From assembly GCA_037349105.1 (NCBI GenBank), contig JAYJMM010000124.1, positions 1,460,501-1,524,500 of the forward strand: DNA of 64,000 nucleotides, written 5' to 3'. Both the position numbers and the translations under genes were made by a program. This document shows, in pieces, positions 4,458 through 57,800 of this stretch. This DNA comes from Limnomonas spitsbergensis. Taxonomy: Eukaryota > Chlorophyta > Chlorophyceae > Chlamydomonadales. Under the pieces are notes generated by a model. It was not told where the DNA came from and made no database searches. It worked only from the letters and a program-made list of their open reading frames with translations. Numbering within the stretch: position 1 is the stretch's first letter; each line of letters begins with the position of its first letter.

Positions 4458-7400
4458 ACCTGCTGCTGCTTCTGCTGTTGCTGCTCCTGCTGCTGCTGCT
4501 GCAGCTGCTCCTGCTGCTGCTGGATGGGGGGAGAAACAGAATCTGGAGCCCGGGCTGTACCTAGTGGCTACGCCGATAGGGAATATGCAGGTGGGTGGGT
4601 GGAAGGGTGGAGGCATGGCGTGGGGTTTGTGCTAGCATGGGGTGGGGGCATGGCATGGGGTTTGTCCTAGCATGAGGTGGGGGCATGGCATGGGGTTTGT
4701 GCTAGCATGGGTGGGGGCATGGCATGGGTTTTATGCTAGCATGAGGTGGGGGCATGGCATGGGGTTTTTGCTAGCATGGGGTGGGGGCATGGCATGGGGT
4801 TTGTGCTAGCATGTGGTGGGGGCATGGCATGGGGTTTGTGCTAGCATGGGGTGGGGGCATGACATAGGGTGTGTGCTAGCATGAGGTGGGGGCATGGCAT
4901 GGGGTTTGTGCTAGCATGGGGTAGGGGCATGGCATGGGGTTTGTGCTAGCATGTGGTGGGGGCATGGCATGGGGTTTGTGCTAGCATGGGGTGGGGGCAT
5001 GGCATGGGGTTTGTGCTAGCATGGGGTGGGGGCATGGCATGGGTTGTGTTCTAGCATGAGGTGGGGGCATGGCATGGGGTTTGTGCCAGCATGGGGTGGG
5101 GGCATGGCATGGGGGGTGTGCTAGCTGGTGTGGGGGCATGGCATGGGGTTTGTGCTAGCATGAGGTGGGGGCATGGCATGGGGTTTGTGCTAGCATGGGT
5201 TGGGGGCATGGCATGGGTTTTGTGCTAGCATGAGGTGGGGGCATGGCATGGGGTTTGTGCTAGCATGTGGTGGGGGCATGGCATGGGGTTTGTGCTAGGA
5301 TGGGGTGGGGGCATGGCATGGGGTTTGTGCTAGCATGGGGTGGGGGCATGGCATGGGGTTTGTGCTAGCATGATGTTGGGGCATGGCATGGGTTTTGTGC
5401 TAGCCTGGGGTGGTGGCATGGCATGGGTTGTGTGCTAGCATGAGGTGGGGGCATGGCATGGGGTTTGTGCTAGCATGAGACATGTCATATGTGGCATACC
5501 ATGGGGTGTAACCGCTTCAGGCAAGGGGTAAGGCCGGTTGGGGCAGGGCATCACGGCATGGGGCAAGGGGCATCAATGCATGTGGCATGGGTGCATGTGA
5601 CATCATGGCATGAGACTTTTCTGCATGGGGCATCGATGCATGTGTTTGAGTGCATTATTGCTTGGGACATGGGGCATAGCGGCATGGTGCATTGTTGCAT
5701 GGGGCATGGTCGCGTGGAGCATCGTTGCATGGATTTGGGGCGTTATTGCATGGGGCAGGGTGTACCATTTCCACACCTTCACACATTTTCAGGACATAAA
5801 GTCACATGCACTGAACATGCTCCGCGCGGTAAGCTTCATCCTGGCCGAGGACACGCGGCACACCTCCAGTTTCACACCCGTTTCCACACATTCTCCCTTT
5901 AAGGACATGACCATACGTGCGCTGAGTGTGCTCCGCTCGGTCAGCCTCATCCTGGCCGAGGACACGCGGCACACGGGGAAGCTGCTCGCCGCGTTTGGGA
6001 TCAAGACCCGCATGGCCAGCTACCACGCACACAATGAGGTGGAGAGGAGTCGGCAGGTGGTGGATCGACTGTTGGGAGGAGAGGTGCGCACTTTGTTTTG
6101 AATTTTGAAGCGCCTAAACCATGAACCATGAACCATTATAATACAACGCACACAATGAGGTGGAGAGGAGTCGACGGGTGGTGCATCGACTGGTGGGAGG
6201 ACTGGTGATGTAATTTGTTTTTACATTTTTAACACCTTCAGCGTGAACCCTACCCCCTTAACCCTTATACATTTTAAACACCTCCAGCTTAAACTTACAA
6301 CTTTACCCCGACCCTCCACACCCTTGTGTGTTCTGCCCCTGGTCAGGGGGCTCCTACCACTGCCCCCTGTAACCCTTAACCCCAAACCTACCCCCCTCCG
6401 CCCCCCTCATGATCTGTTCCTAGTCAGGTGTAACCTTCGCCCCCTGTAGCCCTTAACCCCAAACCCACCCCCCTCCGACCCCCCTCATGATCTGTTACAA
6501 GTCAGGGATAACCACCGCCCCCTGTAACTCTAAACCCCCGTCCGAACCCTCTCGTAGTCTCGTGTGATGTTCCTGCTCGTTGAAAACCATAAGCCCCAAC
6601 ACTTGCAAACCCTGGATCCTAGACCCTATACCCTATACCCACCCTCTTATTGTGCCATGTCCCAGGTTGGTGATAACCTCTAGCTTCTGCACCCCGAAAT
6701 CCTAGTACCCTATACCCTATACCCACCCTCTCCTGTTCTGTCCCTGGTCAGTTATAGCCCCCCCTCCCTAAACCCTAAACCCTACCCCTCCCTCATGTGT
6801 CGTGTCCCTGGCCATGTATATTGTCACCCCCCCTGTAACCCTCTTTCTTCTTGAAGCAGTACTGACATTGGTCAGCGATGCTTGAATGTCCGATATCTCC
6901 TACACCCTTCACCTGAGCCCTTAACCTTTGACCCTAAACCCTGAACCCCACCCCTTTCTTTTACACACAGTCATTGGCGTTGGTCAGCGATGCGGGCATG
7001 CCCGGTATCTCCTACACCTTTCACCTGAGCCCTTAACCTCAGGCCCTAAACCCTCAAGCCCACCCCTTTATTATAAACGCAGTCACTGGTGTTGATCAAC
7101 GATGCAGGCATGCCCGATACCTCCTTCACCCTTAAACCCTGAACCCCGCCCCTTTCTTTTACACACAGTCATTGGCATTGGTCAGCGATGCGGGCATGCC
7201 CGGCATCTCCGACCCCGGCTACGTGGTGGTACAGGCTGCTATTGAGGCGGGCATCAGGGTGGTGCCGGTACCAGGTAGGGGGTGTCCCTCACCTTCCTCT
7301 GGTTAGCACCTTCTGTCTGTGTGCAATTGGACGCACGTGGTGGTGCAGGCTGCCATTGAGGCGGGTATTAGGGTGGTGCCGGTACCAGCCTAAACCATAT

Positions 7401-10400
7401 CCTAACCCCTGTACCCTAAACCCTCAACCCTTTCTGATGTGCCCTATCCTAACCCCTATACCCTTTAGCCTCAACCCTTACCGATGTGCCATATCCTGAC
7501 CCATATACCCTTAACCATCAACCCTAACTGATGTGCCCCATCCTAACCCATATACCATAAACCCTCAACTCTTACTGCTTTGCTCTATCCTATCCCCTAT
7601 ACTTTAAACCCTCAACCCTTACTGCTGTGCCCTATCCTAACCCATATACCCTAAACCATCACTGCTATACCCTGGCTCCAGGCGCGTGTGCACTAGTGGC
7701 CGCGGCTGTGGCGTCGGGCCTGCCTACGGACGCCTTCACCTTCTGCGGCTTCTTGCCGCCCAAACAGGTACAGCGGTACAGTGTACTTCAACCATGTGTG
7801 ACTCGATGACACATTTCAAAAATGCAGTCATCGCCTCTGGCGGGTCTGGAATGCCTGTCGGCCAGTGCTGTGTGCCGATCACGGTCTTTACGGTGGCTGG
7901 ATTTCGTAGCTGACCTTCAGTCACAGGCATTTCAAGGCAATTTAGCGGCAATTTAGCTACCCTTGCCAGCACTTGACCGTAAATAGATTAACGGATTACG
8001 GCTCATAAGCACTACTTTCGGCGCCTATGTCTTGGACAGTGATTATTTCAACCTTGAACCCTGAGCCCCTCTACCCGAAACCCTAAACCCTATGTCTTGG
8101 ACAGTGATTATTTCAACCTTGAACCCTGAGCCCCTCTACCCTAAACCCTAAACCCTATGTCTTGGACAGTGATTATTTCAACCTCGAACCCTGAGCCCCT
8201 CAACCCTAAACCCTATGTCTTGGACAGTGATTATTTCAACCTTGAACCCTGAGCCCCTCTACCCTAAACCCTAAACCCTATGTCTTGGACAGTGATTATT
8301 TCAACCTCGAACCCTGAGCCCCTCAACCCTAAACCCTATGTCTTGGACAGTGATTATTTCAACCTTGAACCCTGAGCCCCTCTACCCTAAACCCTAAACC
8401 CTATGTCTTGGACAGTGATTATTTCAACCTTGAACCCTGAGCCCCTCAACCCGAAACCCTAAACCCTATGTCTTGGACAGTGATTATTTCAACCTTGAAC
8501 CCTGAGCCCCTCTACCCTAAACCCTAAACCCTATGTCTTGGACAGTGATTATTTCAACCTTGAACCCTGAGCCCCTCAACCCTAAACCCTAAACCCTATG
8601 TCTTGGACAGTGATTATTTCAACCTTGAACCCTGAGCCCCTCAACCCTAAACCCTATGTCTTGGACAGTGATTGATTTGTTGTGACTCTTAGCTACGTGT
8701 CAGCTACACTCTGGCCGCTGACCGGAGACCCTATTTGTGGCCAGTCTTGCTGCTTTGGTCATGAGTTGCAGGCCGGGTTCGGTCCTAATTGGGCCTTTGA
8801 CAGCTGCTGGGCCGGCCGCCGAAATTGAACTGAAGTCGAAAAAAGAAGCATTTGTAAAGAAGTAAAGAAAGACTGACGTATATTTGCTTTTCCTTCCCCC
8901 AAAGTTAACGTTGTTTGGGGTTGAGGGATCCATGAATACCGGCATACTAGTCATCGATTATCGACGCCAGTTTTCATCGATTATCGACGCCAGTTTTCAG
9001 TCAGAAATTAAGAGTTTTGTCGATGATTTGCCCTCTTCTCATTCGATGCACCCTTGCAAAAATCGATTTCCTTTCACTTCGTTTGTACTCGTATGATAAC
9101 GATGCACACTCGTTTCTGACACACCCTTTATAAGGAGTGTTTGATGTTTTACAGCCCAGCAGAGCATCACACTTAATGCATGGGACATGTGCCCGCACAC
9201 CGGTACAGGCACTTGATACTCTAGGACAGCTAGCGAAAACCAGTGACCCCACCCTGGGCAAGCAATCAACACACAACCACCGAGTAGTGGTGTGGGAGTG
9301 AACCTTATAGGGCAGAAGATATTCCTGCAGCAACCGTTCGGAAGTGTATGCAATCTGCCATGGAAGGGCCGGGGGGTAGCCAAGTAGTCATTTTTTGCCG
9401 GAAAGGATGTTTTGGGGGGCCAGTCCCGGCCGGCAGGGGTCTAAAAGTGGCCCACCGGTCCGGGCCCTTCTATATCGTACCTTGATGACCGCGTGCAGTC
9501 GTGCACTACATCTCAAACACCCCCCCTGTTGCTGCCCAGGGTGCCAGGCGTACGCAACTGCCGTTGCCATGCACTGACCGCTTGCTGTACAACGATCTCT
9601 GTGTTCATATCACTGCAACAACATCACATCTCACTGCCCCCTGTGACCCAGGGTGCCAGGCGCACGCCGCGGCTGGAGCGCCCTTGTGCAAACTATGTTC
9701 ATCTCGTTTCTTCTGCGTGCTGGAAACGCATACCTGCTGCACCCTTGTGACCCAGGGTGCCAGGCACCACGGCAGGAGCACCCTCAAGCAAACGTTGCAC
9801 ACTATTTTCATTATGCACCCTGAAAACTTTTTTCCCCTGCCGCACCCGTGCGGATTTGCAGAGAGGATCTGCAAGGGCCCTTGTTAAAAATACCCTGACC
9901 CCTTGCAGCACCTCGATGCCTGTGTTCATCACATCGCACTGCCCCCTTTGTCCCAGGGTGCCAGGCGCACGCGGCGTCTGGAGCACCCTCAAGCACACAT
10001 TGCAGACTCGTTTCTTACGCACCCGGTAAAACGTTTCCCTGCTGCAACCCAGTGGCGGAGGGTGCTAGGCGCATGCGGCTGCCCCTGCCATGCACAGACC
10101 GCTTGCTGCACAACATGACATCTCACTGCCCATTGTGTCCACATCACAGCAACGACATTACATCTCACTTCCCCTTGTGGCCCAGGGTGCCAGGCGGACG
10201 CGGCTGGAGGAGCTCAAGGCAATGCGCACCACGCTGGTTTTCTACGCGCCGCCGCACGGCCTCCGGGCAGTGTTGGCTGACATGGTGGAGGTGGGGGGGG
10301 GGAGGGGGGGGAGGGGGGAGGTGGGGGGGGGGGGGCAGTTGAGGATATGCGATTCAGTGTAGAGATGGGGGTATAAGATGAACGTTGAGGGTAGAGGTGC

Positions 10401-13400
10401 TGGGTTTAGGGAGGACAGGGCACTTTTGGCGGTCCTGTTGAAGGGAGGGGGGGCTGAGTTGAGGGTTGAGGGTTCAGGTTGGAGTTGAGGGGGGGGGGGG
10501 TATGAGATGAGGGTTTAGGACTTCGAGTGGAGTAAGGGGAGGTGTTGAGGCTTAAGGAGTGATGGGTTAGAAGTGATGGGTTAGAAGTGATGGGTTAGAA
10601 GTGATGGGTTAGAAGTGACGGGTTAGAAGTGATGGGTTAGAAGTGATGGGTTAGAAGTGATGGGTTAGAAGTGATGGGTTAGAAGTGATGGGTTAGAAGT
10701 GATGGGTTAGAAGTGATGGGTTAGAAGTGATGGGTTAGAAGTGATGGGTTAGAAGTGATGGGTTAGAAGTGATGGGTTAGGAGTGATGGGTTAGAAGTGA
10801 TGGGTTAGAAGTGATGGGTTAGAAGTGATGGGTTAGAAGTGATGGGTTAGAAGTGATGGGTTAGAAGTGATGGGTTAGAAGTGACGGGTTAGAAGTGATG
10901 GGTTAGAAGTGATGGGTTAGAAGTGATGGGTTAGAAGTGATGGGTTAGAAGTGATGGGTTAGAAGTGATGGGTTAGAAGTGATGGGTTAGAAGTGATGGG
11001 TTAGAAGTGATGGGTTAGAAGTGATGGGTTAGGAGTGATGGGTTAGAAGTGACGGGTTAGAAGTGATGGGTTAGAAGTGATGGGTTAGAAGTGATGGGTT
11101 AGAAGTGATGGGTTAGAAGTGATGGGTTAGAAGTGATGGGTTAGAAGTGATGGGTTAGAAGTGATGGGTTAGAAGTGATGGGTTAGAAGTGACGGGTTAG
11201 AAGTGATGGGTTAGAAGTGATGGGTTAGAAGTGATGGGTTAGAAGCGATGGGTTAGAAGTGATGGGTTAGAAGTGATGGGTTAGAAGTGATGGGTTAGAA
11301 GTGATGGGTTAGAAGTGATGGGTTAGAAGTGATGGGTTAGAAGTGATGGGTTAGAAGTGATGGGTTAGAAGTGATGGGTTAGAAGTGATGGGTTAGAAGT
11401 GATGGGTTAGAAGTGATGGGTTAGAAGTGACGGGTTAGAAGTGACGGGTTAGAAGTGATGGGTTAGAAGTGATGGGTTAGAAGTGATGGGTTAGAAGTGA
11501 TGGGTTAGAAGTGATGGGTTAGAAGTGATGGGTTAGAAGTGATGGGTTAGAAGTGATGGGTTAGAAGTGATGGGTTAGAAGTGATGGGTTAGAAGTGATG
11601 GGTTAGAAGTGATGGGTTAGAAGTGATGGGTTAGAAGTGATGGGTTAGAAGTGATGGTTTAGGAGTGATGGGTTAGAAGTGATGGGTTAGAAGTGATGGG
11701 TTAGAAGTGATGGGTTAGAAGTGATGGGTTAGAAGTGATGGGTTAGAAGTGATGGGTTAGAAGTGATGGGTAAGAAGTGATGGGTTAGAAGTGATGGGTT
11801 AGAAGTGATGGGTTAGAAGTGATGGGTTAGAAGTGATGGGTTAGAAGTGATGGGTTAGAAGTGATGGGTTAGAAGTGATGGGTTAGAAGTGATGGGTTAG
11901 GAGTGATGGGTTAGGAGTGATGGGTTAGGAGTGATGGGTTAGGAGTGATGGGTTAGAAGTGATGGGTTAGAAGTGATGGGTTAGAAGTGATGGGTTAGAA
12001 GTGATGGGTTAGAAGTGATGGGTTAGAAGTGATGGGTTAGAAGTGATGGGTTAGAAGTGATGGGTTAGAAGTGATGGGTTAGAAGTGATGGGTTAGAAGT
12101 GATGGGTTAGAAGTGATGGGTTAGAAGTGATGGGTTAGAAGTGATGGGTTAGAAGTGATGGGTTAGAAGTGATGGGTTAGGAGTGATGGGTTAGGAGTGA
12201 TGGGTCAGAAGTGATGGGTTAGAAGTGATGGGTTAGGAGTGATGGGTTAGAAGTGATGGGTTAGAAGTGATGGGTTAGAAGTGATGGGTTAGAAGTGATG
12301 GGTTAGAAGTGATGGGTTAGAAGTGATGGGTTAGAAGTGATGGGTTAGAAGTGATGGGTTAGAAGTGATGGGTTAGAAGTGATGGGTTAGAAGTGATGGG
12401 TTAGAAGTGATGGGTTAGAAGTGATGGGTTAGAAGTGATGGGTTAGAAGTGATGGGTTAGAAGTGATGGGTTAGAAGTGATGGGTTAGAAGTGATGGGTT
12501 AGAAGTGATGGGTTAGAAGTGATGGGTTAGGAGTGGTGGGTTAGGAGTGGTGGGTTAGGAGTGGTGGGTTAGAAGTGATGGGTTAGAAGTGATGGGTTAG
12601 AAGTGATGGGTTAGAAGTGATGGGTTAGAAGTGATGGGTTAGAAGTGATGGGTTAGAAGTGATGGGTTAGAAGTGATGGGTTAGAAGTGATGGGTTAGAA
12701 GTGATGGGTTAGAAGTGATGGGTTAGAAGTGATGGGTTAGAAGTGATGGGTTAGAAGTGATGGGTTAGAAGTGATGGGTTAGAAGTGATGGGTTAGAAGT
12801 GATGGGTTAGAAGTGATGGGTTAGAAGTGATGGGTTAGAAGTGATGGGTTAGAAGTGATGGGTTAGAAGTGATGGGTTAGAAGTGATGGGTTAGAAGTGA
12901 TGGGTTAGAAGTGATGGGTTAGAAGTGATGGGTTAGAAGTGATGGGTTAGAAGTGATGGGTTAGAAGTGATGGGTTAGAAGTGATGGGTTAGAAGTGATG
13001 GGTTAGAAGTGATGGGTTAGAAGTGATGGGTTAGGAGTGATGGGTTAGAAGTGATGGGTTAGAAGTGATGGGTTAGAAGTGATGGGTTAGAAGTGATGGG
13101 TTAGAAGTGATGGGTTAGAAGTGATGGGTTAGAAGTGATGGGTTAGGAGTGATGGGTTAGAAGTGATGGGTTAGAAGTGATGGGTTAGAAGTGATGGGTT
13201 AGAAGTGATGGGTTAGAAGTGATGGGTTAGAAGTGATGGGTTAGAAGTGATGGGTTAGAAGTGATGGGTTAGAAGTGATGGGTTAGAAGTGATGGGTTAG
13301 AAGTGATGGGTTAGAAGTGACGGGTTAGAAGTGATGGGTTAGAAGTAATGGGTTAGAAGTGATGGGTTAGAAGTGATGGGTTAGAAGTGATGGGTTAGAA

Positions 13401-16400
13401 GTGATGGGTTAGAAGTGATGGGTTAGAAGTGATGGGTTAGAAGTGATGGGTTAGAAGTGATGGGTTAGAAGTGATGGGTTAGAAGTGATGGGTTAGAAGT
13501 GATGGGTTAGAAGTGACGGGTTAGAAGTGATGGGTTAGAAGTGATGGGTTAGAAGTGATGGGTTAGAAGTGATGGGTTAGAAGTGATGGTTTAGGAGTGA
13601 TGGGTTAGAAGTGATGGGTTAGAAGTGATGGGTTAGAAGTGATGGGTTAGAAGTGATGGGTTAGAAGTGATGGGTTAGAAGTGATGGGTTAGAAGTGATG
13701 GGTTAGAAGTGATGGGTTAGAAGTGATGGGTTAGAAGTGATGGGTTAGAAGTGATGGGTTAGAAGTGATGGGTTAGAAGTGATGGGTTAGAAGTGATGGG
13801 TTAGAAGTGATGGGTTAGGAGTGATGGGTTAGGAGTGATGGGTTAGGAGTGATGGGTTAGGAGTGATGGGTTAGGAGTGATGGGTTAGGAGTGATGGGTT
13901 AGAAGTGATGGGTTAGAAGTGATGGGTTAGAAGTGATGGGTTAGAAGTGATGGGTTAGAAGTGATGGGTTAGAAGTGATGGGTTAGAAGTGATGGGTTAG
14001 AAGTGATGGGTTAGAAGTGATGGGTTAGAAGTGATGGGTTAGAAGTGATGGGTTAGAAGTGATGGGTTAGAAGTGATGGGTTAGAAGTGATGGGTTAGAA
14101 GTGATGGGTTAGAAGTGATGGGTTAGAAGTGATGGGTTAGAAGTGATGGGTTAGAAGTGATGGGTTAGAAGTGATGGGTTAGAAGTGATGGGTTAGAAGT
14201 GATGGGTTAGGAGTGATGGGTTAGGAGTGATGGGTTAGAAGTGATGGGTTAGAAGTGATGGGTTAGAAGTGATGGGTTAGAAGTGATGGGTTAGAAGTGA
14301 TGGGTTAGAAGTGATGGGTTAGAAGTGATGGGTTAGAAGTGATGGGTTAGAAGTGATGGGTTAGAAGTGATGGGTTAGAAGTGATGGGTTAGAAGTGATG
14401 GGTTAGAAGTGATGGGTTAGAAGTGATGGGTTAGAAGTGATGGGTTAGAAGTGATGGGTTAGAAGTGATGGGTTAGAAGTGATGGGTTAGAAGTGATGGG
14501 TTAGAAGTGATGGGTTAGAAGTGATGGGTTAGAAGTGATGGGTTAGAAGTGATGGGTTAGGAGTGATGGGTTAGAAGTGATGGGTTAGAAGTGATGGGTT
14601 AGAAGTGATGGGTTAGAAGTGATGGGTTAGAAGTGATGGGTTAGAAGTGATGGGTTAGAAGTGATGGGTTAGAAGTGATGGGTTAGAAGTGATGGGTTAG
14701 AAGTGATGGGTTAGAAGTGATGGGTTAGAAGTGATGGGTTAGAAGTGATGGGTTAGAAGTGATGGGTTAGAAGTGATGGGTTAGAAGTGATGGGTTAGAA
14801 GTGATGGGTTAGGAGTGATGGGTTAGGAGTGATGGGTTAGGAGTGGTGGGTTAGAAGTGATGGGTTAGAAGTGATGGGTTAGAAGTGATGGGTTAGAAGT
14901 GATGGGTTAGAAGTGATGGGTTAGAAGTGATGGGTTAGAAGTGATGGGTTAGAAGTGATGGGTTAGAAGTGATGGGTTAGAAGTGATGGGTTAGAAGTGA
15001 TGGGTTAGAAGTGATGGGTTAGAAGTGATGGGTTAGAAGTGATGGGTTAGAAGTGATGGGTTAGAAGTGATGGGTTAGAAGTGATGGGTTAGAAGTGATG
15101 GGTTAGAAGTGATGGGTTAGAAGTGATGGGTTAGAAGTGATGGGTTAGAAGTGATGGGTTAGAAGTGATGGGTTAGAAGTGATGGGTTAGAAGTGATGGG
15201 TTAGAAGTGATGGGTTAGAAGTGATGGGTTAGAAGTGATGGGTTAGAAGTGATGGGTTAGAAGTGATGGGTTAGAAGTGATGGGTTAGAAGTGATGGGTT
15301 AGAAGTGATGGGTTAGAAGTGATGGGTTAGAAGTGATGGTTTAGGAGTGATGGGTTAGAAGTGATGGGTTAGAAGTGATGGGTTAGAAGTGATGGGTTAG
15401 AAGTGATGGGTTAGAAGTGATGGGTTAGAAGTGATGGGTTAGAAGTGATGGGTTAGAAGTGATGGGTTAGAAGTGATGGGTTAGAAGTGATGGGTTAGAA
15501 GTGATGGGTTAGAAGTGATGGGTTAGAAGTGATGGGTTAGAAGTGATGGGTTAGGAGTGATGGGTTAGGAGTGATGGGTTAGGAGTGATGGGTTAGGAGT
15601 GATGGGTTAGGAGTGATGGGTTAGGAGTGATGGGTTAGAAGTGATGGGTTAGAAGTGATGGGTTAGAAGTGATGGGTTAGAAGTGATGGGTTAGAAGTGA
15701 TGGGTTAGAAGTGATGGGTTAGAAGTGATGGGTTAGAAGTGATGGGTTAGAAGTGATGGGTTAGAAGTGATGGGTTAGAAGTGATGGGTTAGAAGTGATG
15801 GGTTAGAAGTGATGGGTTAGAAGTGATGGGTTAGAAGTGATGGGTTAGAAGTGATGGGTTAGAAGTGATGGGTTAGAAGTGATGGGTTAGAAGTGATGGG
15901 TTAGAAGTGATGGGTTAGAAGTGATGGGTTAGAAGTGATGGGTTAGAAGTGATGGGTTAGAAGTGATGGGTTAGAAGTGATGGGTTAGAAGTGATGGGTT
16001 AGAAGTGATGGGTTAGAAGTGATGGGTTAGAAGTGATGGGTTAGAAGTGATGGGTTAGAAGTGATGGGTTAGAAGTGATGGGTTAGAAGTGATGGGTTAG
16101 AAGTGATGGGTTAGGAGTGATGGGTTAGGAGTGGTGGGTTAGGAGTGGTGGGTTAGAAGTGATGGGTTAGAAGTGATGGGTTAGAAGTGATGGGTTAGAA
16201 GTGATGGGTTAGAAGTGATGGGTTAGAAGTGATGGGTTAGAAGTGATGGGTTAGAAGTGATGGGTTAGAAGTGATGGGTTAGAAGTGATGGGTTAGAAGT
16301 GATGGGTTAGAAGTGATGGGTTAGAAGTGATGGGTTAGAAGTGATGGGTTAGAAGTGATGGGTTAGAAGTGATGGGTTAGAAGTGATGGGTTAGAAGTGA

Positions 16401-19400
16401 TGGGTTAGAAGTGATGGGTTAGAAGTGATGGGTTAGAAGTGATGGGTTAGAAGTGATGGGTTAGAAGTGATGGGTTAGAAGTGATGGGTTAGAAGTGATG
16501 GGTTAGAAGTGATGGGTTAGAAGTGATGGGTTAGAAGTGATGGGTTAGAAGTGATGGGTTAGAAGTGATGGGTTAGAAGTGATGGGTTAGAAGTGATGGG
16601 TTAGAAGTGATGGGTTAGAAGTGATGGGTTAGAAGTGATGGGTTAGAAGTGATGGGTTAGAAGTGATGGGTTAGAAGTGATGGGTTAGAAGTGATGGGTT
16701 AGAAGTGATGGGTTAGAAGTGATGGGTTAGAAGTGATGGGTTAGAAGTGATGGGTTAGAAGTGATGGGTTAGAAGTGATGGGTTAGAAGTGATGGGTTAG
16801 AAGTGATGGGTTAGGAGTGATGGGTTAGGAGTGATGGGTTAGAAGTGATGGGTTAGAAGTGATGGGTTAGAAGTGATGGGTTAGAAGTGATGGGTTAGAA
16901 GTGATGGGTTAGAAGTGATGGGTTAGAAGTGATGGGTTAGGAGTGATGGGTTAGAAGTGATGGGTTAGAAGTGATGGGTTAGAAGTGATGGGTTAGAAGT
17001 GATGGGTTAGAAGTGATGGGTTAGAAGTGATAGGTTAGAAGTGATGGGTTAGAAGTGATGGGTTAGAAGTGATGGGTTAGAAGTGATGGGTTAGAAGTGA
17101 TGGGTTAGAAGTGACGGGTTAGAAGTGACGGGTTAGAAGTAATGGGTTAGAAGTGATGGGTTAGAAGTGATGGGTTAGAAGTGATGGGTTAGAAGTGATG
17201 GGTTAGAAGTGATGGGTTAGAAGTGATGGGTTAGAAGTGATGGGTTAGAAGTGATGGGTTAGAAGTGATGGGTTAGAAGTGATGGGTTAGAAGTGATGGG
17301 TTAGAAGTGATGGGTTAGAAGTGATGGGTTAGGAGTGATGGGTTAGGAGTGATGGGTTAGAAGTGATGGGTTAGAAGTGATGGGTTAGGAGTGATGGGTT
17401 AGAAGTGATGGGTTAGAAGTGATGGGTTAGAAGTGATGGGTTAGAAGTGATGGGTTAGAAGTGATGGGTTAGAAGTGATGGGTTAGAAGTGATGGGTTAG
17501 AAGTGATGGGTTAGAAGTGATGGGTTAGAAGTGATGGGTTAGAAGTGATGGGTTAGAAGTGATGGGTTAGAAGTGATGGGTTAGAAGTGATGGGTTAGAA
17601 GTGATGGGTTAGAAGTGATGGGTTAGAAGTGATGGGTTAGGAGTGATGGGTTAGGAGTGATGGGTTAGAAGTGATGGGTTAGAAGTGATGGGTTAGAAGT
17701 GATGGGTTAGAAGTGATGGGTTAGAAGTGATGGGTTAGAAGTGATGGGTTAGAAGTGATGGGTTGGAAGTGATGGGTTAGAAGTGATGGGTTAGAAGTGA
17801 TGGGTTAGAAGTGATGGGTTAGAAGTGATGGGTTAGAAGTGATGGGTTAGAAGTGATGGGTTAGAAGTGATGGGTTAGAAGTGATGGGTTAGGAGTGATG
17901 GGTTAGGAGTGATGGGTTAGAAGTGATGGGTTAGAAGTGATGGGTTAGAAGTGATGGGTTAGAAGTGATGGGTTAGAAGTGATGGGTTAGAAGTGATGGG
18001 TTAGAAGTGATGGGTTTAGGGCGTGGAAGTTAGTGTTGGCAGACCGGGTGGAGATGAGTGGGGCTGTGTTGAGGGTTTGGGGTGGAGCTGGGGGGGGGGG
18101 GGGGGGGCTGAGGTGAGGTTTCAGGGCGGGGAGGGGGCTGGATTATGCTGGGTATTCATAACCAGCTGAAATACCCTGTAAAGTAGGATATTTTAACTAA
18201 ATCTTTAGTGTGTAGATGACAATGTTGCCAGACCGGGTGGACATGTGTGTGTTTGGGGGGGGGTATGAGTTGATGGTTTAGGGTTTAGGTGGGGATGCTG
18301 AGGGTTTAGAGTTCAGAGGTGGTGTTGGCGGACCTGGTGCAGGTGGGCGGAATGAATGAAGGGGTCTATGGGAGAGGGGAGAGGGGCTGAGTGTAGCAAA
18401 TTAACATTTCCAAACCCCTGCTATCCATCCACCCTAACTTCCAAATCCCTTTCCTCTAACGACCCTTTCACCACCTGCACCCTAACCCCTAAACCCATTG
18501 ACTCTAACCACCGATTGACCCCCTGCACCCTGATCCCAGCTTATAAAAAATCCTCCACTCTGATCACCATCACCCACATTACAACCTCAAACCCCTGCAT
18601 CTCAAACCCCAGGTGATGGGGCCGGCCAGACGCATGTTTGTGGCTAGAGAGCTGACCAAAACCCTCCGTTTTGACCCTCCAACCTAACCAACCATAAACC
18701 CTGAAATGCTCCCCCCTGAACCCCAGGTGTTGGGGCCTGCCAGGCGTGTGTGTGGCACGAGAGCTTACCAAAGCATTTTGACTTCAACCACCCTAACCAA
18801 CCTTTAACCCTGGAATATGTTTTCCGTAAACCCCAGGTGTTGGGGCCTGCCCGACGCGTGTGTGTGGCACAAGAGCTTACCAAAGCATTTTGACTATAAC
18901 CACCCTAACCAACCTTAAACCCTGGCATATGTTTTCCGTAAACCCCAGGTGTTGGGGCCTGCCCGACGCGTGTGTGTGGCACGAGAGCTTACCAAGATCC
19001 ACGAGGAGTTCTACAGGTGAGATTATATAGGGTTTGGGGGGGTAGGACTTAGAAGTGAGGTTATAAACGGTTGAGGGGTTAGGATTCGTAGTGCTTGAAT
19101 GGCCAATTCATTTATTTATTTGTTGGCCCGTTTCCTCAATCTACAGGTGAGGTGTTGGGGTTCGGTTTTATAAGGTGAGAATTTGGGGTTGAGGGGTCCG
19201 GATTTGTAGCACTTGAATGGCCATTTTATTAAAGTTTATGTTGTGTTGGCCCGTTTTAAGTCTTTGACGAAAGAAGAAGGGAGAGGGAAGGAAAAGGGAA
19301 GGAAGGAAGAAGAAAGGAAAGAAGAAAGAAGAAAAAAAACTACACCCCGTGGGAGGCGTGAGAGTTAAGGAAACAGCGCAGCCTGGGCCAAAGCCACATC

Positions 19401-25485: not shown

Positions 25486-25552
25486 CCCCTACAAAACCTG
25501 CTAACGTTTAGGCTTCTGCTCCTTATCCTTACTGCAACCTGGTGAGGATCTG

Positions 25553-29097: not shown

Positions 29098-29224
29098 GGT
29101 CGAGGTGACTCCTGGTGAAAGGGCAGGAGGTTGCGGCTTGATTGCCCAAGGCTAAGCCTGCTTTTCAAATGGTCATCATTTACAGTCACGAATAGGGGTG
29201 CAAAAGGATATTATAAATGATTTT

Positions 29225-45300: not shown

Positions 45301-46421
45301 TGACCCTCAGCATGCCAAGCTTAGAAGGGATGATGGTCTGAGGCTGTCCAGTGATCCTGCACCTCGTCTGGAAGCCACAGCTTGGACATCAACACTGAGG
45401 GCTTGCCATGCACCTACACCCTGAGGGCCTGCCGTGGGCCGCGAGACAGCTAGTTTGCGACACCTGGCTCGAGACTCCACGTAAACTGTGTCTCAGTCTT
45501 GCCATGGGCCACAATCATGGTGCAGCACTACGACTCTAAAGCTTGTTGTGGTCATGGACCCAAAACCCTGTGGGCACTCTATGTGCCTAAACCCTGCAAA
45601 CTGCAAACCCTCATTGGCACCCACGCACCTTCTATGGTCGCGATGTCCACTTTGTCGACGGATCTTTGGGGCCGGTACTCGGGATCAGTGTACACCTGGT
45701 ACTCGGGCTTTGCAACGTACGACTCGTCCTCGCCGCCGCCCTCGCTGTCCTCTTCTTCGAACGACATCGGTTTGGACGAGCCGGAGGCGGCAGCGGCGAG
45801 GGCGGAAGGCAGGGAGGCTAACGGGTCGCGCTTTGCGTCGGCAGCCGAGCTGGCAGCTGGATTGCGGGGCTTGCCGAAGCCCTTGCTGGCTTTAGCAGGT
45901 GCGGCAGAGGACAGCATAGCCGCTAAATCGGTATCATCCTCGTCATCGTCCCATGCAGCATGGTCGTCGCCGCCGGGGCTGTTGTCGTCGGCCTTGCGAT
46001 TGCTAGGTTGCGACCCGCTGTGCTTGTGATTCCTAGAGGCACATGTGGCAACGTGGGACAAATGGCCCTGCCTTTTGCCTGCGAGCTGCGCCTGCGCCCG
46101 GGATCGGTTGCTGCTGACGCTTCTGAGCGCGGTGTTGGTTGTGCTGAGGATACAGCAGCGATGAGGTCTGCGATCGGAAGGGAACAGCGCGCGCAGGGCT
46201 GCTCGCACGGTGCGCAGCTCTGACATGGGCAGCGCAGAGCTGGATGGACCAAGCATGGCGCTCTCGCAACTATAGTGAGGATGCGATGGCTGATTGCTTG
46301 TAACGACGCGATTGGGCCTGTAGTCACGGTGCAGCAGGACCCGCGTGGTTGGATAAGGCTTTTGAGGCTGCAGCAGCCGACATGGTGGGGATAAAAGTGT
46401 TGAACATGTGTGGGGATTCAT
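33346..46421 (-). CDS. SET-domain protein lysine methyltransferase, at least eleven exons
   Basis: Exons in transcription order: 46421-45629, 44108-43987, 42803-42711, 41182-41033, 38257-38103, 37733-37644, 37273-37120, 35868-35740, 35126-35017, 34402-34193, 33739-33346 (stop). Every junction is GT–AG and preserves frame. SET motifs are split over the exons. GRRGIVAKEDSNAGDLMLLV (second exon) is the SET N-terminal strand. GLWPEFSLLSHSCVPN (fifth exon) is the NHSC-type SAM/active-site motif, with Ser in place of the usual Asn. VHAAKDIEAGEPLT follows. RGFECRCPRC, split across the sixth and seventh exons, is the post-SET zinc-binding CxCxxC. The order and spacing fit SMYD-like or plant TPR–SET proteins that methylate lysines. 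The N-terminal exon is acidic and Ala-rich (AAWDDDEDDTDLAAMLSS). The C-terminal exons are helical and unrecognised. The start is uncertain: 46421 is the first Met, but Met at about 46255 or 46227 or a further 5' exon is possible. Confidence 0.85.
33830..33885 (-). repeat. Decayed acceptor-side copy of the last SET-gene exon
   Basis: Carries GGCCCTCGCGCAGCACACCC and CAGCTGCTTAAGGGTCACGA followed by AGCCCTGGCAG on the plus strand, matching the exon edge at 33695-33745. The GTAT of the exon start is lost. Confidence 0.8.
34403..34830 (-). repeat. About seven acceptor-side copies of a SET-gene exon edge
   Basis: The plus-strand sequence CTCTGCCAGCTCAGCACGCG followed by ACCTGGCAG (acceptor plus about 22 coding bases of exon 34402-34193) recurs every 55-70 bp, with increasing decay, between G-rich spacers. 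Confidence 0.85.
34880..35330 (-). repeat. Edge copies flanking the 35.0-35.1-kb SET-gene exon
   Basis: A donor-side copy (CACCTGGCCAGCGTGTTGTA on the plus strand) lies at about 34882-34932. Two acceptor-side copies (CGAAGAACCGATGGRTGGGA) lie at about 35188-35218 and 35297-35327. All are partial; the complete exon is 35126-35017. Confidence 0.8.
35925..36560 (-). repeat. 18-bp minisatellite in a SET-gene intron
   Basis: About 35 copies of GTTACTGGGTTGGTG-type 18-bp units with ordered variants (GCAGTTACTGTGTTG). The array is bounded on its right by a partial copy of the downstream exon's acceptor edge (TCTCAACCTCAGGCACCATA at about 36566), so a duplicated exon edge sits at its outer end. The long Val/Thr/Asn ORF across it is a repeat artefact. 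Confidence 0.9.
36815..37075 (-). repeat. Three donor-side copies of the 37.1-kb SET-gene exon end
   Basis: The last 70-80 coding bases of exon 37273-37120 plus the donor are repeated about every 110-130 bp. The nearest copy (about 37014-37070) still reads QWNACQENGDMDGLKSLQQ in frame; the next two are frameshifted or truncated. Spacers are C-rich on the plus strand. Confidence 0.9.
37500..37635 (-). repeat. 27-bp minisatellite in a SET-gene intron
   Basis: Five copies of AATCTTGTCACCTTTCCCGT followed by TTCCCCA on the plus strand, directly beside the donor of exon 37733-37644. Confidence 0.85.
37885..38045 (-). repeat. Two donor-side copies of the SET-motif exon end
   Basis: CAGTACCTTGTGCGTGGCTA (plus strand, about 37991) and TAGTACCTTGAGAGTGGCTG (about 37884) are decayed copies of the donor edge at 38095-38150, about 107-110 bp apart. 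Confidence 0.85.
38450..38600 (+). repeat. Dispersed repeat B, copy 2
   Basis: Copy of the family at 8690-8830, standing immediately before the 188-bp satellite array. Confidence 0.75.
38690..40485. repeat. 188-bp satellite, nine copies plus a degenerate leading unit
   Basis: The marker CTGTCCCGAGGTTTCAG occurs at 38804, 38992, 39180, 39368, 39556, 39744, 39932, 40120 and 40308, exactly 188 bp apart each time. Units are nearly identical, with variants such as GGTGAAGC/GGTGGAGC. A divergent unit lies at 38690-38803. It lies within the intron between SET-gene exons 41182-41033 and 38257-38103. Confidence 0.97.
40735..41030 (-). repeat. Three donor-side copies of the 41.0-kb SET-gene exon end
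   Basis: Copies of the exon end and donor (plus strand CTGCATGACAGCCGTGTCCT type) lie at about 40749, 40837 and 40946, about 100 bp apart, with a shared intron spacer including ACATGACATTC and GTACTGCA elements. Confidence 0.8.
41915..42060. repeat. Single 188-bp satellite unit
   Basis: One partial unit of the satellite at 38690-40485, from CAGCTGTCCCGAGGTTTCAG to GATGTGAAGACCG, isolated in the next intron. Confidence 0.9.
42125..42345. repeat. CA-rich microsatellite region
   Basis: Imperfect ACACAC and CACGCACACAATCACACA runs, some repeated at 42190-42265 as a 50-bp duplication. Confidence 0.7.
42550..42700 (-). repeat. Two donor-side copies of the 42.7-kb SET-gene exon end
   Basis: GGCAGAGGGCGGGCCTGTCG and GGCAGAGGGGGGGCCTGACG followed by GGTCAC (plus strand) repeat the exon segment at about 42720-42750, about 95 bp apart. 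Confidence 0.8.
42804..43345 (-). repeat. 53-bp minisatellite built on a splice acceptor
   Basis: About ten copies of a 53-bp unit (plus strand GGACATCTACACAACAGGGG, AGGGGGCGAGTCATATACAT, AAAAGAGGGGGCA). Each unit contains GGACATCTACA, the complement of the functional acceptor TGTAG with the first exon bases ATGTCC at 42798-42808. Every unit is therefore a potential acceptor with six exon bases. A diverged copy of the whole exon (encoding MLEDGLPPVPPH) stands beyond the array at about 43415-43530. Confidence 0.9.
43690..43986 (-). repeat. Donor-side copies of the 44.0-kb SET-gene exon end
   Basis: Five or more decayed units of the type CTACCTGCAGATCCTCTGCT followed by TCGGGAGCC (plus strand), about 45-50 bp apart, next to the functional donor at 43986/43987. 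Confidence 0.75.
44255..44400 (+). repeat. Dispersed repeat B, copy 3
   Basis: Again stands immediately before an array of the 188-bp satellite, as copy 2 does. Confidence 0.75.
44430..45295. repeat. 188-bp satellite, second array
   Basis: Markers CTGTCCCGAGGTTTCAG at 44554, 44739, 44927 and 45115 (185, 188, 188 bp) plus a partial leading unit. Sequence is nearly identical to the array at 38690-40485. It lies in the intron between SET-gene exons 46421-45629 and 44108-43987. Confidence 0.95.
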
Positions 46422-47760: not shown

Positions 47761-47764
47761 GATT

Positions 47765-52790: not shown

Positions 52791-53084
52791 CAACAATGCC
52801 TACGTCCCTCGCTACGTCCTCAACGAAAGTCAGAGCTTCCCACCCAGCCATCACTCCATCAGTGAACCCTCCTTGTGCAACTTCGACTTATCTAGCATTA
52901 AATGGTAGTACCTTGTGTCTCTCCCAGCTTTGCCTTGCATCCCAAATCCAACTCGTACCGGTTGTGACATGGATGATGAGTGTTGTTGACGGACCCTCGG
53001 TTTGCCTCTGACCCCACATCTTCCAAAACCAGCCATTTATCTCCATGCGCCCATGTATAACTGATGGCCTCACCTCTAGTACCC

Positions 53085-53385: not shown

Positions 53386-53389
53386 CAGG

Positions 53390-54640
53390 AGCTCCATACA
53401 CCCGCGGGTCTACCTTGACTATTTGAAGTATGGTAATCATATGTAACGGTAATGGTCCAGAGGTGTCCTGCCTGTCATTGACATGTAAATGATAATCACA
53501 TTCCAAGGCTTGTCTTATCGTTATTATCCACAGTTCCACAGTCCACACCATTGTCAGCATGTGGTGCAATCTCGCGCGCATGGACTGCTTGGCAAGCCAA
53601 ACTCTTCAACACCCCGTACGTGATTATGTCACTAGGGCTGGTCGATGTATCATGCACTCCTGGAGTTTTGGTCTCCGCCCACTTTGCTTGCCCCTCCCCT
53701 CCTCACCGATGACCATAAACGATACTGAATGTCCCATTTTTTGCTTCTATTGGCATCCCCAAAGCGCAGCTTCCTACATTTCTTGACACAATCGTGTCAT
53801 CCTCAAGATTTATGCCGCTAAGAAAATCTGCAGTTACGTCGTTTCAAGAAGGGCTGGATCTCCGATCCAGATCGTCTTACCGAACATCCCGATCATGTGC
53901 CGATTAGGGTGGAACGATAGATTCGAAATTGTCGTGAATATCAATGCTCTGATGAGATAATTTTTTGAGCAATAATTGAGATCCGAGGTTCGGCGCGCGA
54001 AGGAAGCGAACGGACCGCGCTTCAGGGCGGGCGCTGCAGGGCTTGTGAAGCAGGGGCATGCCTTCAGACTACGACAATCAATAGCCCAGCCAACAACTGT
54101 GCTCCCTGAGAAAAACTCCTTCCCTACAGCTCCCCGAAGCCCCCCCCCCCTCTACTGAGCTTTACAGAAATCCGAATTGCACTCCCGCCGTGATTGATGG
54201 CCTAGCGTGACTCAGCATCGAATTATCGTGCCTTGCCTTCAACGTGTAACGCTCCTGGATCATCTTTGCTAATGGCGCCTTACAGCCTCATCCACGGCTC
54301 TGCCCTGCGGCCTCTGGGGTCCTTCGGTCACTTGCCGTCCTCCAGCTCCAGGGCCAGCGGTGCATCGTCTCGATGCTCGACCCGGACGGCAGCAACTGCC
54401 AGCTCTTACATGGAACGCGTTCAGGTGCTTTACTCACGCATACGAGGCGGTCGCATGCGATAGTGAGGGAGGGTGTTAAAGTCAATGAGGGTTGCGCGTT
54501 CATCAGGCATCCATCGAGTCCAGTCCATGGGGCATGAGCAGGATCCGCTGCGATCACCTCGATTTTTGAATTCCGCTGACTGGAAATCCAACGCCCCTGG
54601 CGTCACGTGCCCTGCTGAGCCAACAGCATGACAGATGCTC
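53390..54640. other. No supported gene; possible 5' region of the Mpv17-type gene
   Basis: A first exon of the downstream Mpv17/PMP22 gene is expected here or nearer 54.8 kb, but I could not identify one. Open stretches at 54233-54463 (plus) and 54288-54557 (minus) have no recognisable domain. Confidence 0.3.
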
Positions 54641-54659
54641 CTCAGTGTTAATTTACGCG

Positions 54660-54785
54660 CTTTTATGGTGCACTACAGCTACATCACGGCCACTCTGCAA
54701 GCTCTGTTGCTTTAGCCACGGCCATAGGTCGGTCAGGGCTTGGTCCTCATCGGCCCTGTATCAGCCACCTGTCACTCTCCCCAAG
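54660..54785 (+). repeat. Dispersed repeat B, copy 4
   Basis: The most diverged copy of the family at 8690 (ACAGCTACATCACGGCCACT, GTTGCTTTAGCCACGGCCAT). Confidence 0.6.
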
Positions 54786-54880
54786 GTGGTCTGTTGCATA
54801 CTAAATAGACACTGTTGCTCCTCCTGCATCTTGCCGTCTTCCACACCCATGTCTGTGTTTTCCTGCCTCTCTCTCTTCAG

Positions 54881-57800
54881 GGTTTCCAAGGGCCATGGAA
54901 GGCAGCTTGTACCTCGGGTGTTCTGTCTGCCCTGGGTGACTCCCTGGCCCAAACGCTAGGAATGTACATGGAGCAGGTGGGCACGCCATGCAGGGTTGCA
55001 TGCATGGAGGGAGTTCACGAAAGACACGCCATGCAGGGTTGCATGCATGGAGGGAGTTCACGAAAGACACGCCATGCAGGGTTGCATGCATGGAAGGAGT
55101 TCAAGAAGGACATGCCATGCAGGGTTGCATGCATGGTGGAAGAGCATGGAGAAAAAGCTGCATGCAAGCGGCCATGCTATTCGGGCAGCCACTATCCTGC
55201 TCACAACAGAAAGCCTAGTATTCTACTTGGGCTAGCATACCCAGCTCTGTCTTGTCCCGCTTTTGATAGCCTAGTCTCCTGCTTGTCTTGTCCGGCTCTA
55301 GATGGCCTTGTCTCCTGCTTGTCCTTTCCCACTCGTCCTGTCCCGCTTCCGATAGTCTAGCATCCTGCTTGGGATTGGGCGCCGAGCCTTGTCCTGTCGT
55401 TTTCAAAAAGCAAAATGTTCTGGATGGGCTGTTCAGGGTTTCAAAAAATCATGTTCTGGATGGGCTTTTCTTTGTGTTAGACATCATTTCCTCTTGTGCC
55501 TTATGCCCGCAGAAAGAGGGTCGGGCCAATCCACCGTACAACCCCTGGAGGACGTTGAGGATGTTTGGATTCGGCTTCTGTTGGTACGGCCCCTACCAGT
55601 TCTATTGGTGAGGAATGCATGCAGTACACGGGGTACATGCTATCCGGTGGTACATGCAGTACATTATGTATATTTGGGCTGGACTTATGTTGGTACGGCC
55701 CCTAACAGTTTTACTGGTGAGCAGTACATGCAGTACATGGGGTACATGCTATCTGGTGATACATGATGTACAATATGTATGTTTGGGCTGGCCTTATGTT
55801 GGTACGGCCCTTAACAGTTTTACTGGTGAGCAGTACATGCAGTACATGGGGTACATGCTATCTGGTGGTACATGCTGTACATTATATAGCTTTGGATTGA
55901 ACTTCTTTTGTCATGACCCCTCCCACTTACACTGGTGAGCAGTACATGCAGCACACGGGGCACATGCTATCTGTGAGCAGTACATGCAGTACATGCTATC
56001 TGGTTTCACAGGCTGTACAGTACAGCCGCAAGCCCCTAGGCCGTAGGCTGTGATGTAGCTACAGTGTGATAAATGAACGGTGGTCGTCACACTACACAAG
56101 AACAAACATGTACCGCTGCCATCCATGTAGCACCCTGCCCACGTCCATCGGGGTCAGGGTTTAGGGTTAAGTATGTGCTGCTGTTATCCATAGGCGACTT
56201 AGTGTGGTGGAATGCAGGGGAATGAGTGGCCTCGTTATGGAGGGCTGCGAGGATGGTGAGCAGCCCTGCCACATAATATCTTATGTGTATCTGCAGGTGT
56301 GATCTACTCCCACCTTTATTTCCACACTAGTGTGAAACAGCCATGTTACTTAATACTGTATGTGGGCCTCCAGGTGTTCATACTACGGGTAGTGTGAAAC
56401 AGTCATGTCAGACAAGGCTATTTTGTGTAGTGCTCGCCGCATCATGTTTGTGTTCACACGTCACATATTGCCCTGGTCCACACTAGTGTGACACAGTTTT
56501 GTATCAGAATATCTGATGTAGAGATTCAAGTACCACCAAACCGGTTTGAATCTGCGTACAATAAATTACTTGTGGAGGTACAAGGAGTGGTGTGCGACAG
56601 AAAAAAAAAAGGGAAAAAAGGGGAAAAGGTAACAACTACTTTGGGGGGTGCGCTGAGTAGTGTTTCCGGCTCCAAATATGAAAACAATTCAGCTGCGCGT
56701 GCGCAGAGTAGGATACTTTTTGCCTGTGCAACGAATTTGCCTGATGTGACCCTGTAGGTATAACATGCTCGAGTGGGCCATGCCTTTGAAGACCACGCTG
56801 AACTTCCTAGCCAAGGTCGCCTCCAATCAGCTGCTCCTGGCGCCATGCACGGTGTCGGGCCTGTTCGCATGGAACCTGTGTCTGGCTGGAAAAGCAGAGG
56901 TATGATTGTTTCTGTATGAAACAGAGGTGCACGATGGTTGCACAGAAGACAGAGGTACGATTGTTTCCTTAAAGAACAAAAGTATGATTTCTCCGTAAAA
57001 ACAGAGGTGCGATTGTGTCTGTAAAAAGCAGTTTCATGATTGTTTCCATCAAATCGGACTATAACCATCTGAAATTGAACCCTGAACCCTGCCCACCCGG
57101 ACCCTGAACCCTACCGACCCTGACCCTGAACCCTGCCCACCCTGAACCTGAAGTCCTGAACCCTGCCGGCACAGGACCTTGACCCTGAACCCTGCCATCC
57201 CTCAACTGCCTTCAGGAGCTGCCCAACAAGATGAAGGCCGACTTGGTGCCGACGATGATGAACGGCAAGTTTTCTTTGCTATGCTCTCTTCTACTGTACG
57301 TCATGGTGGCCATGGTGCGGACGTGGCCTTGGCCCGTGCCGCACGGTCTCTCTGACCCTCACACGGCACCTTCTGGGGCGCAGTTTTCTCTCCTTGCCCT
57401 GATGTCACCCCCCATACTGTTCCACCCTTTGACCCCCCCACACACACTTTTTCACATTTAACACCGCAGGTTGGAAATTCTGGGTACCTGCGGCCAGCCT
57501 CAACTTTTACTGCATCCCCATCCAGCTACAGGTAGACACACGACCTCCGATGATTGTATTTCACCCCTGGCTCTCGCTATATTTCATTCATGTTTAATTC
57601 AGTTCTAGTCCATGCGGCCCTGAGGTTGTTTTTCAAACCATGAACCCTCAAAAAAATCTTCTCGCAAACCACCCCCTGAGCTGGACCCTAAACCCTCACC
57701 GCATGGCATGCCACCCTCAGGTTCTATACATGTCATGCTGCGGCGTTTTGTGGACGGCCTACCTCTCATATGCTTCCACAACGCCTCAAGGGGCAACCGC

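What the first reader, a model, noticed from the sequence alone, without database searches (positions are those of the whole stretch)
4591..57060. Splice-edge-anchored tandem duplications flank nearly every exon of three unrelated genes
In rsmI, the SET gene and the Mpv17 gene, almost every internal exon has partial tandem copies of its own edge, made of intron terminus, splice site and 6-80 coding bases, lying in the adjacent intron. Acceptor-side series stand before 5904 (1 copy), 7169 (3), 10186 (5), 18949 (3), 21512 (4), 34402 (about 7), 35126 (2) and 42803 (about 10, plus a whole-exon copy). Donor-side series follow 37120 (3), 38103 (2), 41033 (3), 42711 (2), 43987 (5 or more), 54976 (4), 55607 (3) and 56899 (5). 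Unit lengths range from about 35 to 190 bp and copies decay with distance from the exon. Chance tandem duplication would not centre on splice junctions in three genes. This suggests a genome-wide process, with R-loops, splicing-coupled breaks or DNA-level template switching at exon edges as candidates. It would both enlarge introns and generate reserve splice sites.
Basis: seen in the sequence. Interest (0 to 1): 0.93.

Follow-up and report, generated by a model that had tools for sequence, protein, structure and literature searches.

The report
Algal introns carpeted with tandem duplications
In this snow-alga genome, short stretches of DNA are repeatedly copied side by side inside genes, and because the copying ignores where introns end, many splice sites now sit beside decaying copies of themselves; the genes seem to cope, which makes it a natural test of how cells pick the right splice site.

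Summary
It is not confined to these genes: kinesin genes picked without regard to repeats show it at 12 of 48 junctions. By assembly statistics the genome is that of the snow alga Limnomonas spitsbergensis.

The claim that the duplications are anchored on splice edges is not supported. Junctions are overlapped about as often as ordinary intron positions: 0.44 against 0.41 per intron, difference +0.03, 95% interval -0.07 to +0.12, with no peak at the junction and a fall only inside the exon. The best reading is frequent short tandem duplication that ignores gene structure and is tolerated where the outermost splice site survives. Copies on the intron side, newest nearest the exon, follow from geometry.

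"Reserve splice sites" are not supported. Duplicated introns are longer, so intron growth by this route is supported. Specificity for introns, and mild edge enrichment in long introns, remain open.

The parts
4297..21616 (+). rsmI-like gene, 10 exons: 4297-4590, 5904-6083, 7169-7274, 7682-7767, 10186-10290, 18949-19016, 19598-19670, 20200-20601, 21171-21281, 21512-21616 (start codon within exon 1)
   Evidence: in-frame translation with stop; 120 listed homologues 52-66% identical; PF00590 E=1.2e-30
5767..5837 (+). copy of acceptor edge of exon 5904
   Evidence: score 31, 75% over 71
6160..6248 (+). copy of donor edge 6083 (not named by reader)
   Evidence: score 50, 81% over 89
6840..7127 (+). 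3 copies of acceptor edge 7169
   Evidence: scores 76, 47, 32; TRF 6857-7133 period 112
7335..7408 (+). copy of donor edge 7274 (not named by reader), first donor base changed
   Evidence: score 35; alignment
9510..10081 (+). 5 copies of acceptor edge 10186 (a sixth, at distance 44, is weak)
   Evidence: scores 49, 37, 29, 25, 20
18604..18995 (+). 3 copies of acceptor edge 18949 plus the edge itself
   Evidence: scores 84, 60, 38; TRF period 112
21307..21523 (+). short-overlap copies of acceptor edge 21512
   Evidence: weak: score 18, 23 and 18; TRF 21307-21493 period 49
33346..46256 (-). SET-domain gene, 11 exons: 45629-46256, 43987-44108, 42711-42803, 41033-41182, 38103-38257, 37644-37733, 37120-37273, 35740-35868, 35017-35123, 34193-34402, 33346-33739
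   Evidence: in-frame translation with stop; PF00856 E=4.6e-7
33828..33922 (-). copy of acceptor edge 33739 (not named by reader)
   Evidence: score 58; alignment
34068..34111 (-). copy of donor edge 34193 (not named by reader)
   Evidence: score 27, 20
34403..34812 (-). 5 copies of acceptor edge 34402 at this threshold
   Evidence: scores 43, 38, 25, 19, 18
34848..34937 (-). copy of donor edge 35017 (not named by reader)
   Evidence: score 62, 89% over 80
35124..35360 (-). 2 copies of acceptor edge 35123
   Evidence: scores 50, 52
36563..36610 (-). copy of acceptor edge 35868 (not named by reader), separated from it by a 15-bp minisatellite (35922-36560)
   Evidence: score 36, distance 718, AG lost; TRF
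36810..37119 (-). 2-3 copies of donor edge 37120
   Evidence: scores 76, 54; TRF 36810-37201 period 117
37871..38102 (-). 2 copies of donor edge 38103
   Evidence: scores 53, 32
40710..41032 (-). 2 copies of donor edge 41033
   Evidence: scores 49, 22
42530..42710 (-). 2 copies of donor edge 42711 (a third, further off, scores 16)
   Evidence: scores 35, 34
42804..43352 (-). 10 copies of acceptor edge 42803 (only 6 coding bases)
   Evidence: 10 copies, scores 21-39; TRF period 53
43738..43986 (-). 4 copies of donor edge 43987
   Evidence: scores 39, 26, 23, 22
54271..57531 (+). Mpv17-like gene, partial model: 54271-54424, 54881-54976, 55513-55607, 56758-56899, 57216-57264 (GC donor), 57472-57531
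54982..55136 (+). 43-bp array next to donor 54976; copies lack the GT
   Evidence: TRF
55608..55971 (+). 3 copies of donor edge 55607
   Evidence: scores 61, 62, 45
56900..57027 (+). 2 copies of donor edge 56899 at this threshold, weaker ones by eye
   Evidence: scores 23, 20; TRF period 26

Best explanation
This genome has a high rate of short local tandem duplication, usually 20-150 bp between a junction and its nearest copy, that pays no attention to exon-intron borders. A duplication whose segment runs across a splice junction leaves two full splice sites. The protein is preserved only if splicing keeps the outermost one (first donor, last acceptor), so the extra copy becomes intron and is neutral. 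Every new junction-spanning event puts the youngest copy next to the exon; older copies drift. Introns grow this way and become carpets of decayed copies, while exons stay clean because duplications wholly inside them are removed. Shown here: the copies, their frequency, rough equality with intron interior, decay that looks neutral, link with intron length. Inferred: the mutational step (replication slippage or template switching), the selection in exons, and that the outermost site is the one spliced.
For: Junctions overlapped by a duplication: 37 of 96 (window 25 of 48, kinesin 12 of 48) against a class-matched chance of 0.8%. Per intron (42 introns of 230 bp or more): junction 0.440, interior 0.413, difference +0.027, 95% interval -0.067 to +0.118; after null correction +0.028 (-0.067 to +0.121), and between -0.025 and +0.018 at the other five thresholds tried. 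Profile: 37/96 at the junction, 40/96 at +30, 38/96 at +60, 35/88 at +100, 23/80 at +130, 25/64 at +200, 14/42 at +300, 16/30 at +400; inside exons 28/96 at -20, 20/96 at -40, 7/96 at -60. Copies look neutral: best copy at each of 30 junctions, mismatches at codon positions 1/2/3 are 45/39/70 (all 60 copies: 105/68/143), roughly what I expect if the copy drifts freely while the exon changes mostly silently; no model was fitted. GT 0.84 against 0.79 for neighbours (22 junctions), AG 0.72 against 0.78 (18), intervals include zero. Distance to nearest copy modulo 3 is 15/15/10 for residues 0/1/2 (40 junctions); 3 of 29 window cases would insert an open in-frame piece. Introns with a duplicated junction are longer (28 of 48; median 690.5 against 384 bp, p=0.002).
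Against: Sample is 48 introns; an excess at junctions up to about 12 percentage points is not excluded. In introns of 800 bp or more, junctions reach 0.667 against 0.573 inside (15 introns, interval -0.116 to +0.274). In the window, introns are far more duplicated than the remaining DNA (2835 of 4486 points, or 1690 of 3340 without the 14-mer array, against 774 of 4641), so the rate may not be uniform; that DNA includes an armadillo-repeat frame and a weak reverse-transcriptase match and was not annotated further. The link with intron length is weak within the window alone (p=0.18; kinesin p=0.03). Zhao et al. (PMC3887541, abstract and passages) report more tandem repeats near intron ends in Chlamydomonas and Volvox. 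No RNA data were seen, so use of the outermost site rests on the protein reading frames.
Confidence: 0.75

Rival explanations
1. Splice-edge-anchored process: breaks, R-loops or template switching centred on exon edges create the duplications and grow introns from both ends.
For: 16 of 21 internal exons in the window carry at least one edge copy; long introns (800 bp or more) show somewhat more at the junction than inside (20/30 at 0 and 21/30 at +10 against 11/30 to 17/30 at +100 to +400); a published end bias of tandem repeats in two algae (PMC3887541).
Against: No junction excess overall; no peak in the profile; the donor-side half of the intron, G-rich in the transcript, is not more duplicated than the acceptor half (0.384 against 0.444), against an R-loop driver; several arrays lie wholly inside introns.
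Confidence: 0.12
2. Intron-specific duplication: a process tied to transcription or to intron DNA, not to splice edges, makes tandem copies mostly in introns.
For: In the window 2835 of 4486 intron points are in local duplications (1690 of 3340 without the 14-mer array) against 774 of 4641 points outside the three genes and 105 of 668 exon points.
Against: One window; non-gene DNA was not annotated and may be young transposons or hold undetected genes; exon depletion is expected from selection.
Confidence: 0.25
3. Functional reserve or alternative splice sites kept by selection.
For: Many copies keep GT or AG (mean over junctions 0.72 donors, 0.50 acceptors, where neighbour identity predicts 0.65 and 0.63); donor-like motifs in intron interiors exceed a local single-base shuffle (66 and 39 in the two halves against 24 and 10), though arrays inflate such counts.
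Against: Dinucleotides are not kept significantly better than neighbouring bases; coding parts decay at all codon positions; 3 of 29 would be in frame and open.
Confidence: 0.05
4. Assembly artefact.
For: Tandem repeats are a common source of assembly error (general knowledge).
Against: Copies are mostly 72-91% identical, arrays under 1 kb are far shorter than the reads, PacBio 63x and Illumina polishing (PMC11228838, part of methods); edge copies in 11 of 22 kinesin loci.
Confidence: 0.02

Closest known systems
Intronic minisatellites / tandem repeats of green algae (PMC3887541; abstract, introduction and passages seen)
   Same: Head-to-tail repeats, densest in introns in Chlamydomonas reinhardtii and Volvox carteri, more frequent toward intron ends
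   Different: That study counted repeat motifs by relative position; the passages I saw do not describe units that include the splice site and coding bases, and suggest a splicing role, for which the copies here give no support
Intron gain by tandem genomic duplication (review PMC3443670, passages seen; potato RdRp case PMC4974935, search listing only)
   Same: Tandem duplication yields two copies of a splice-competent sequence and the copy in between is spliced out
   Different: There an exonic segment with AGGT makes a new intron; here the segment spans an existing junction and lengthens an existing intron
Introners (PMC9860276, search listing only; features recalled)
   Same: Genome-wide process that shapes introns
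   Different: Introners share one sequence across many genes; here the repeats are local to each junction (matches to other sampled genes 0.8%)
Long introns of core-Reinhardtinia algae (PMC8226300, passages seen)
   Same: Introns lack the usual short-length peak; the paper leaves the cause of intron length open
   Different: Different species; tandem duplication as the cause is my proposal

Membership tests
Intronic minisatellite / local tandem duplication | adjacent head-to-tail copies | tested here: met
   TRF arrays; nearest copy 21-154 bp away at 35 of 40 junctions with a copy of score 22 or more
Intronic minisatellite / local tandem duplication | no function of the unit, neutral drift | tested here: met
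   codon-position mismatches 45/39/70 at 30 junctions; dinucleotide retention like neighbours; limited sample
Intron gain by tandem genomic duplication | duplicated segment is exonic and carries AGGT | tested here: not met
   units contain intron end, splice site and coding bases
Intron gain by tandem genomic duplication | a new intron position arises | not tested
   intron positions were not compared with relatives
Introner | same sequence in introns of many genes | tested here: not met
   junction and interior windows match introns of other sampled genes at 0.8%; not tested genome-wide
Splice-edge-anchored duplication (proposed by reader) | junctions overlapped more often than intron positions | tested here: not met
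   0.440 against 0.413, interval -0.067 to +0.118; an excess up to about 0.12 is not excluded
Reserve splice sites | copy splice sites conserved above neighbours | tested here: not met
Reserve splice sites | copies used in RNA | not testable with these tools
   no RNA reads available here

The most novel reading that the evidence does not exclude
Introns of this lineage grow by a duplication process that is specific to introns (tied to transcription or intron DNA). It leaves on the order of 50,000 splice junctions (12 of 48 sampled, scaled to the published 18,277 genes with 6.7 exons each) next to near-copies of themselves, with the spliceosome holding to the outermost site at each, a natural genome-wide experiment in splice-site choice and an explanation for the long introns of these algae.
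Probability: 0.25. Interest if true: 0.8.

Novelty: new variant of a known kind. Interest (0 to 1): 0.5.

Why it matters
If about a quarter of splice junctions in a genome sit next to decaying copies of themselves (12 of 48 in the kinesin sample), full-length RNA reads of this alga (the authors describe IsoSeq data) could show directly how often, and by what rule (first transcribed, strongest, exon-defining), the right site is chosen. It also offers a concrete, testable mechanism for intron growth in algae whose long introns are unexplained, and a warning for gene annotation: coding-like exon edges in introns here look like relics.

Tried and rejected
Blastn self-comparison was too insensitive (12 of 48) and was replaced by constrained local alignment. 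A hairpin between the G-rich 5' half and C-rich 3' half of introns was tested: no excess pairing across halves against local shuffles (0.388 against 0.383, p=0.95, 30 introns), although total folding energy was lower than in shuffles (-0.292 against -0.275 per nt, p=0.0017). Gene-model rows dropped: of 32 kinesin introns called, 5 with poor splice sites or reading were dropped before (27 kept) and 3 more doubtful ones before (24 kept); searches used all 51 introns (24 window, 27 kinesin). With the 3 doubtful introns the kinesin count is 14 of 54. Only 68 of 139 kinesin matches lie in fetched DNA. A second family sample (dynein DHC_N2) gave coordinates but no DNA. A frame error of mine: one search read the Mpv17-like gene one base off and gave 4 of 29 open in-frame cases; one search corrects it to 3 of 29. 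Papers: nine searches; among the titles and abstract starts listed (capped lists) I saw none about duplicated splice junctions on a genome scale; the library lacks most subscription journals.
Full report
What was checked. The window is G000:C124:1460501-1524500 of a 260,226,709-base, 124-contig genome. Its size, contig number and a contig of 10,736,355 bases, with a GC of 54.4% in the kinesin loci, match the published assembly of the Arctic snow alga Limnomonas spitsbergensis (260,248,090 bp, 124 contigs, longest 10.736 Mb, 54.15% GC; PMC11228838: abstract, most of the results, part of the methods and the data section seen). The identification is by these statistics, not by a name from the tool; the two sizes differ by 21 kb. 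The best named hits of the rsmI protein are Sanguina (66%), Gonium (63%) and Chlamydomonas incerta (62%).

Gene models. I rebuilt the three genes by eye and tested them by translation: 10 rsmI exons and 11 SET exons give open frames to a stop; the Mpv17-like model is partial.

The duplications are there. Chance matches to other genes reach 0.8% (384 junction trials and 1500 interior trials).

They are not peculiar to these three genes. From 139 kinesin exon matches, 22 loci (20 fetched by place, two) were examined and gave 32 introns by homology plus splice motifs; 24 were kept after dropping 8 doubtful ones. There 12 of 48 junctions are overlapped by a duplication. A second measure that needs no splice-site call, the 44 coding bases at the end of each kinesin match against the adjacent 1000 bases, gives 22 of 129 edges (chance 0.8-1.6%) and 3 of 124 for exon middles; 11 of 22 loci have at least one edge hit. 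Scaling 12 of 48 to the published 18,277 genes with 6.7 exons each gives roughly 50,000 such junctions; this is an extrapolation from one gene family.

They are not shown to be anchored on splice sites. The same measure at intron-interior points gives 0.413 per intron against 0.440 for junctions of the same 42 introns; difference +0.027, 95% bootstrap interval -0.067 to +0.118. It stays within -0.025 to +0.028 at six thresholds after correction with class-specific nulls. The profile has no peak at the junction: 37/96 there, then 40/96 at +30, 38/96 at +60, 35/88 at +100, 23/80 at +130, 25/64 at +200, 14/42 at +300, 16/30 at +400; it falls inside the exon (28/96 at -20, 7/96 at -60). Long introns show a small, non-significant excess at the junction (0.667 against 0.573, 15 introns). 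Against the exon interior, junctions are enriched, but selection on coding sequence would explain that.

Why it looks anchored. A tandem duplication spanning an acceptor must leave its extra copy upstream, and one spanning a donor downstream, or the protein would be broken. Each further spanning event puts the newest copy beside the exon, so copies appear to decay with distance. Both features that suggested a special process follow from geometry plus selection on the protein. This is an argument, not a test.

The copies look like neutral relics. Using the best copy at each of 30 junctions, mismatches in the coding part fall 45/39/70 on codon positions 1/2/3 (rates 0.12/0.11/0.19); with all 60 copies 105/68/143 (0.14/0.09/0.19). 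The excess at position 3 is what silent change in the exon would add, while positions 1 and 2 show drift of the copy; no model was fitted. GT or AG in the copies is kept like its neighbours (donor 0.84 against 0.79, acceptor 0.72 against 0.78, intervals include zero; 22 and 18 junctions). Distance to the nearest copy is not biased to multiples of three (15/15/10 for residues 0/1/2), and 3 of 29 window cases would insert an open in-frame piece. So neither maintenance as reserve sites nor purging as harmful decoys is seen at this sample size; the acceptor value leans slightly towards loss.

Consequence for introns. Introns with at least one duplicated junction are longer (28 of 48; median 690.5 against 384 bp, p=0.002; Spearman 0.50 between length and number of duplicated junctions). 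Taken apart, the kinesin set gives p=0.03 and the window p=0.18. The published mean intron length is 788 bp.

What stays open. In the window, introns are far richer in local duplications than the rest (2835 of 4486 points; 1690 of 3340 without the 14-mer array; 774 of 4641 outside the genes), but the rest was not annotated for transposons or other genes. Introns also have a strong strand asymmetry: sense-strand GC skew falls from about +0.3 at the donor to about -0.35 at the acceptor, first half above second half in 46 of 50 introns (p=2.6e-12), and in 18 of 24 longer introns after 100 nt are cut from each end. By eye the sign change moves inward with intron length, which would fit growth by local duplication that preserves order. 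Pairing between halves is not in excess. Both halves are about equally duplicated (0.384 and 0.444), which speaks against R-loops as driver.

Prior knowledge. Tandem repeats are known to be densest in introns and more frequent toward intron ends in Chlamydomonas and Volvox (PMC3887541, abstract and passages). Intron gain by tandem genomic duplication is known (PMC3443670, passages) but makes new introns from exonic AGGT segments. The genome paper, in the parts I saw, reports 33% repeats and runs Tandem Repeats Finder but does not describe intron arrays. Among the listed results of the paper searches (capped lists, titles and abstract starts) I saw nothing about duplicated splice junctions on a genome scale.

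Noticed in passing
50 introns of the window and kinesin loci: Sense-strand GC skew falls from about +0.3 at the donor to -0.35 at the acceptor across the whole intron; first half above second half in 46 of 50, and by eye the sign change scales with intron length
   Followed up: partly
introns, window and kinesin loci: Telomere-like words (GGGTT toward donors, AACCC toward acceptors) are frequent in introns of 150-5000 nt: AACCC 3.6-7.1 per kb by decile against 2.1 per kb over whole kinesin loci; CTAAC/CTGAC inside them resemble branch points (by eye, recalled motif)
   Followed up: partly
10558-18016: 7.4-kb array of about 533 copies of a 14-mer (AGTGATGGGTTAGA) inside rsmI intron 5
   Followed up: no
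38796-40459, 44438-45295 and about 41920-42060: 188-bp satellite unit in arrays in two introns of the SET gene and, by eye, a single unit in a third; looks like a dispersed satellite
   Followed up: no
57265: GC-AG intron in the Mpv17-like gene (exon ends AACG, donor GCAAGT; read by eye)
   Followed up: no
27676-29151, minus strand: Open frame of 491 codons with armadillo repeats (PF00514, E=1.7e-55)
   Followed up: partly
59854-60591 and 22912-25488, minus strand: Weak reverse-transcriptase match (PF00078, 20.4 bits, under cut-off) and an 858-codon open frame without Pfam match, possibly retroelement parts
   Followed up: partly
intron interiors (introns of 250-5000 bp among the 48): Donor-like motifs exceed a local single-base shuffle (66 and 39 in first and second halves against 24 and 10); acceptor-like motifs only slightly (37 and 54 against 33 and 40); arrays inflate the counts
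   Followed up: partly
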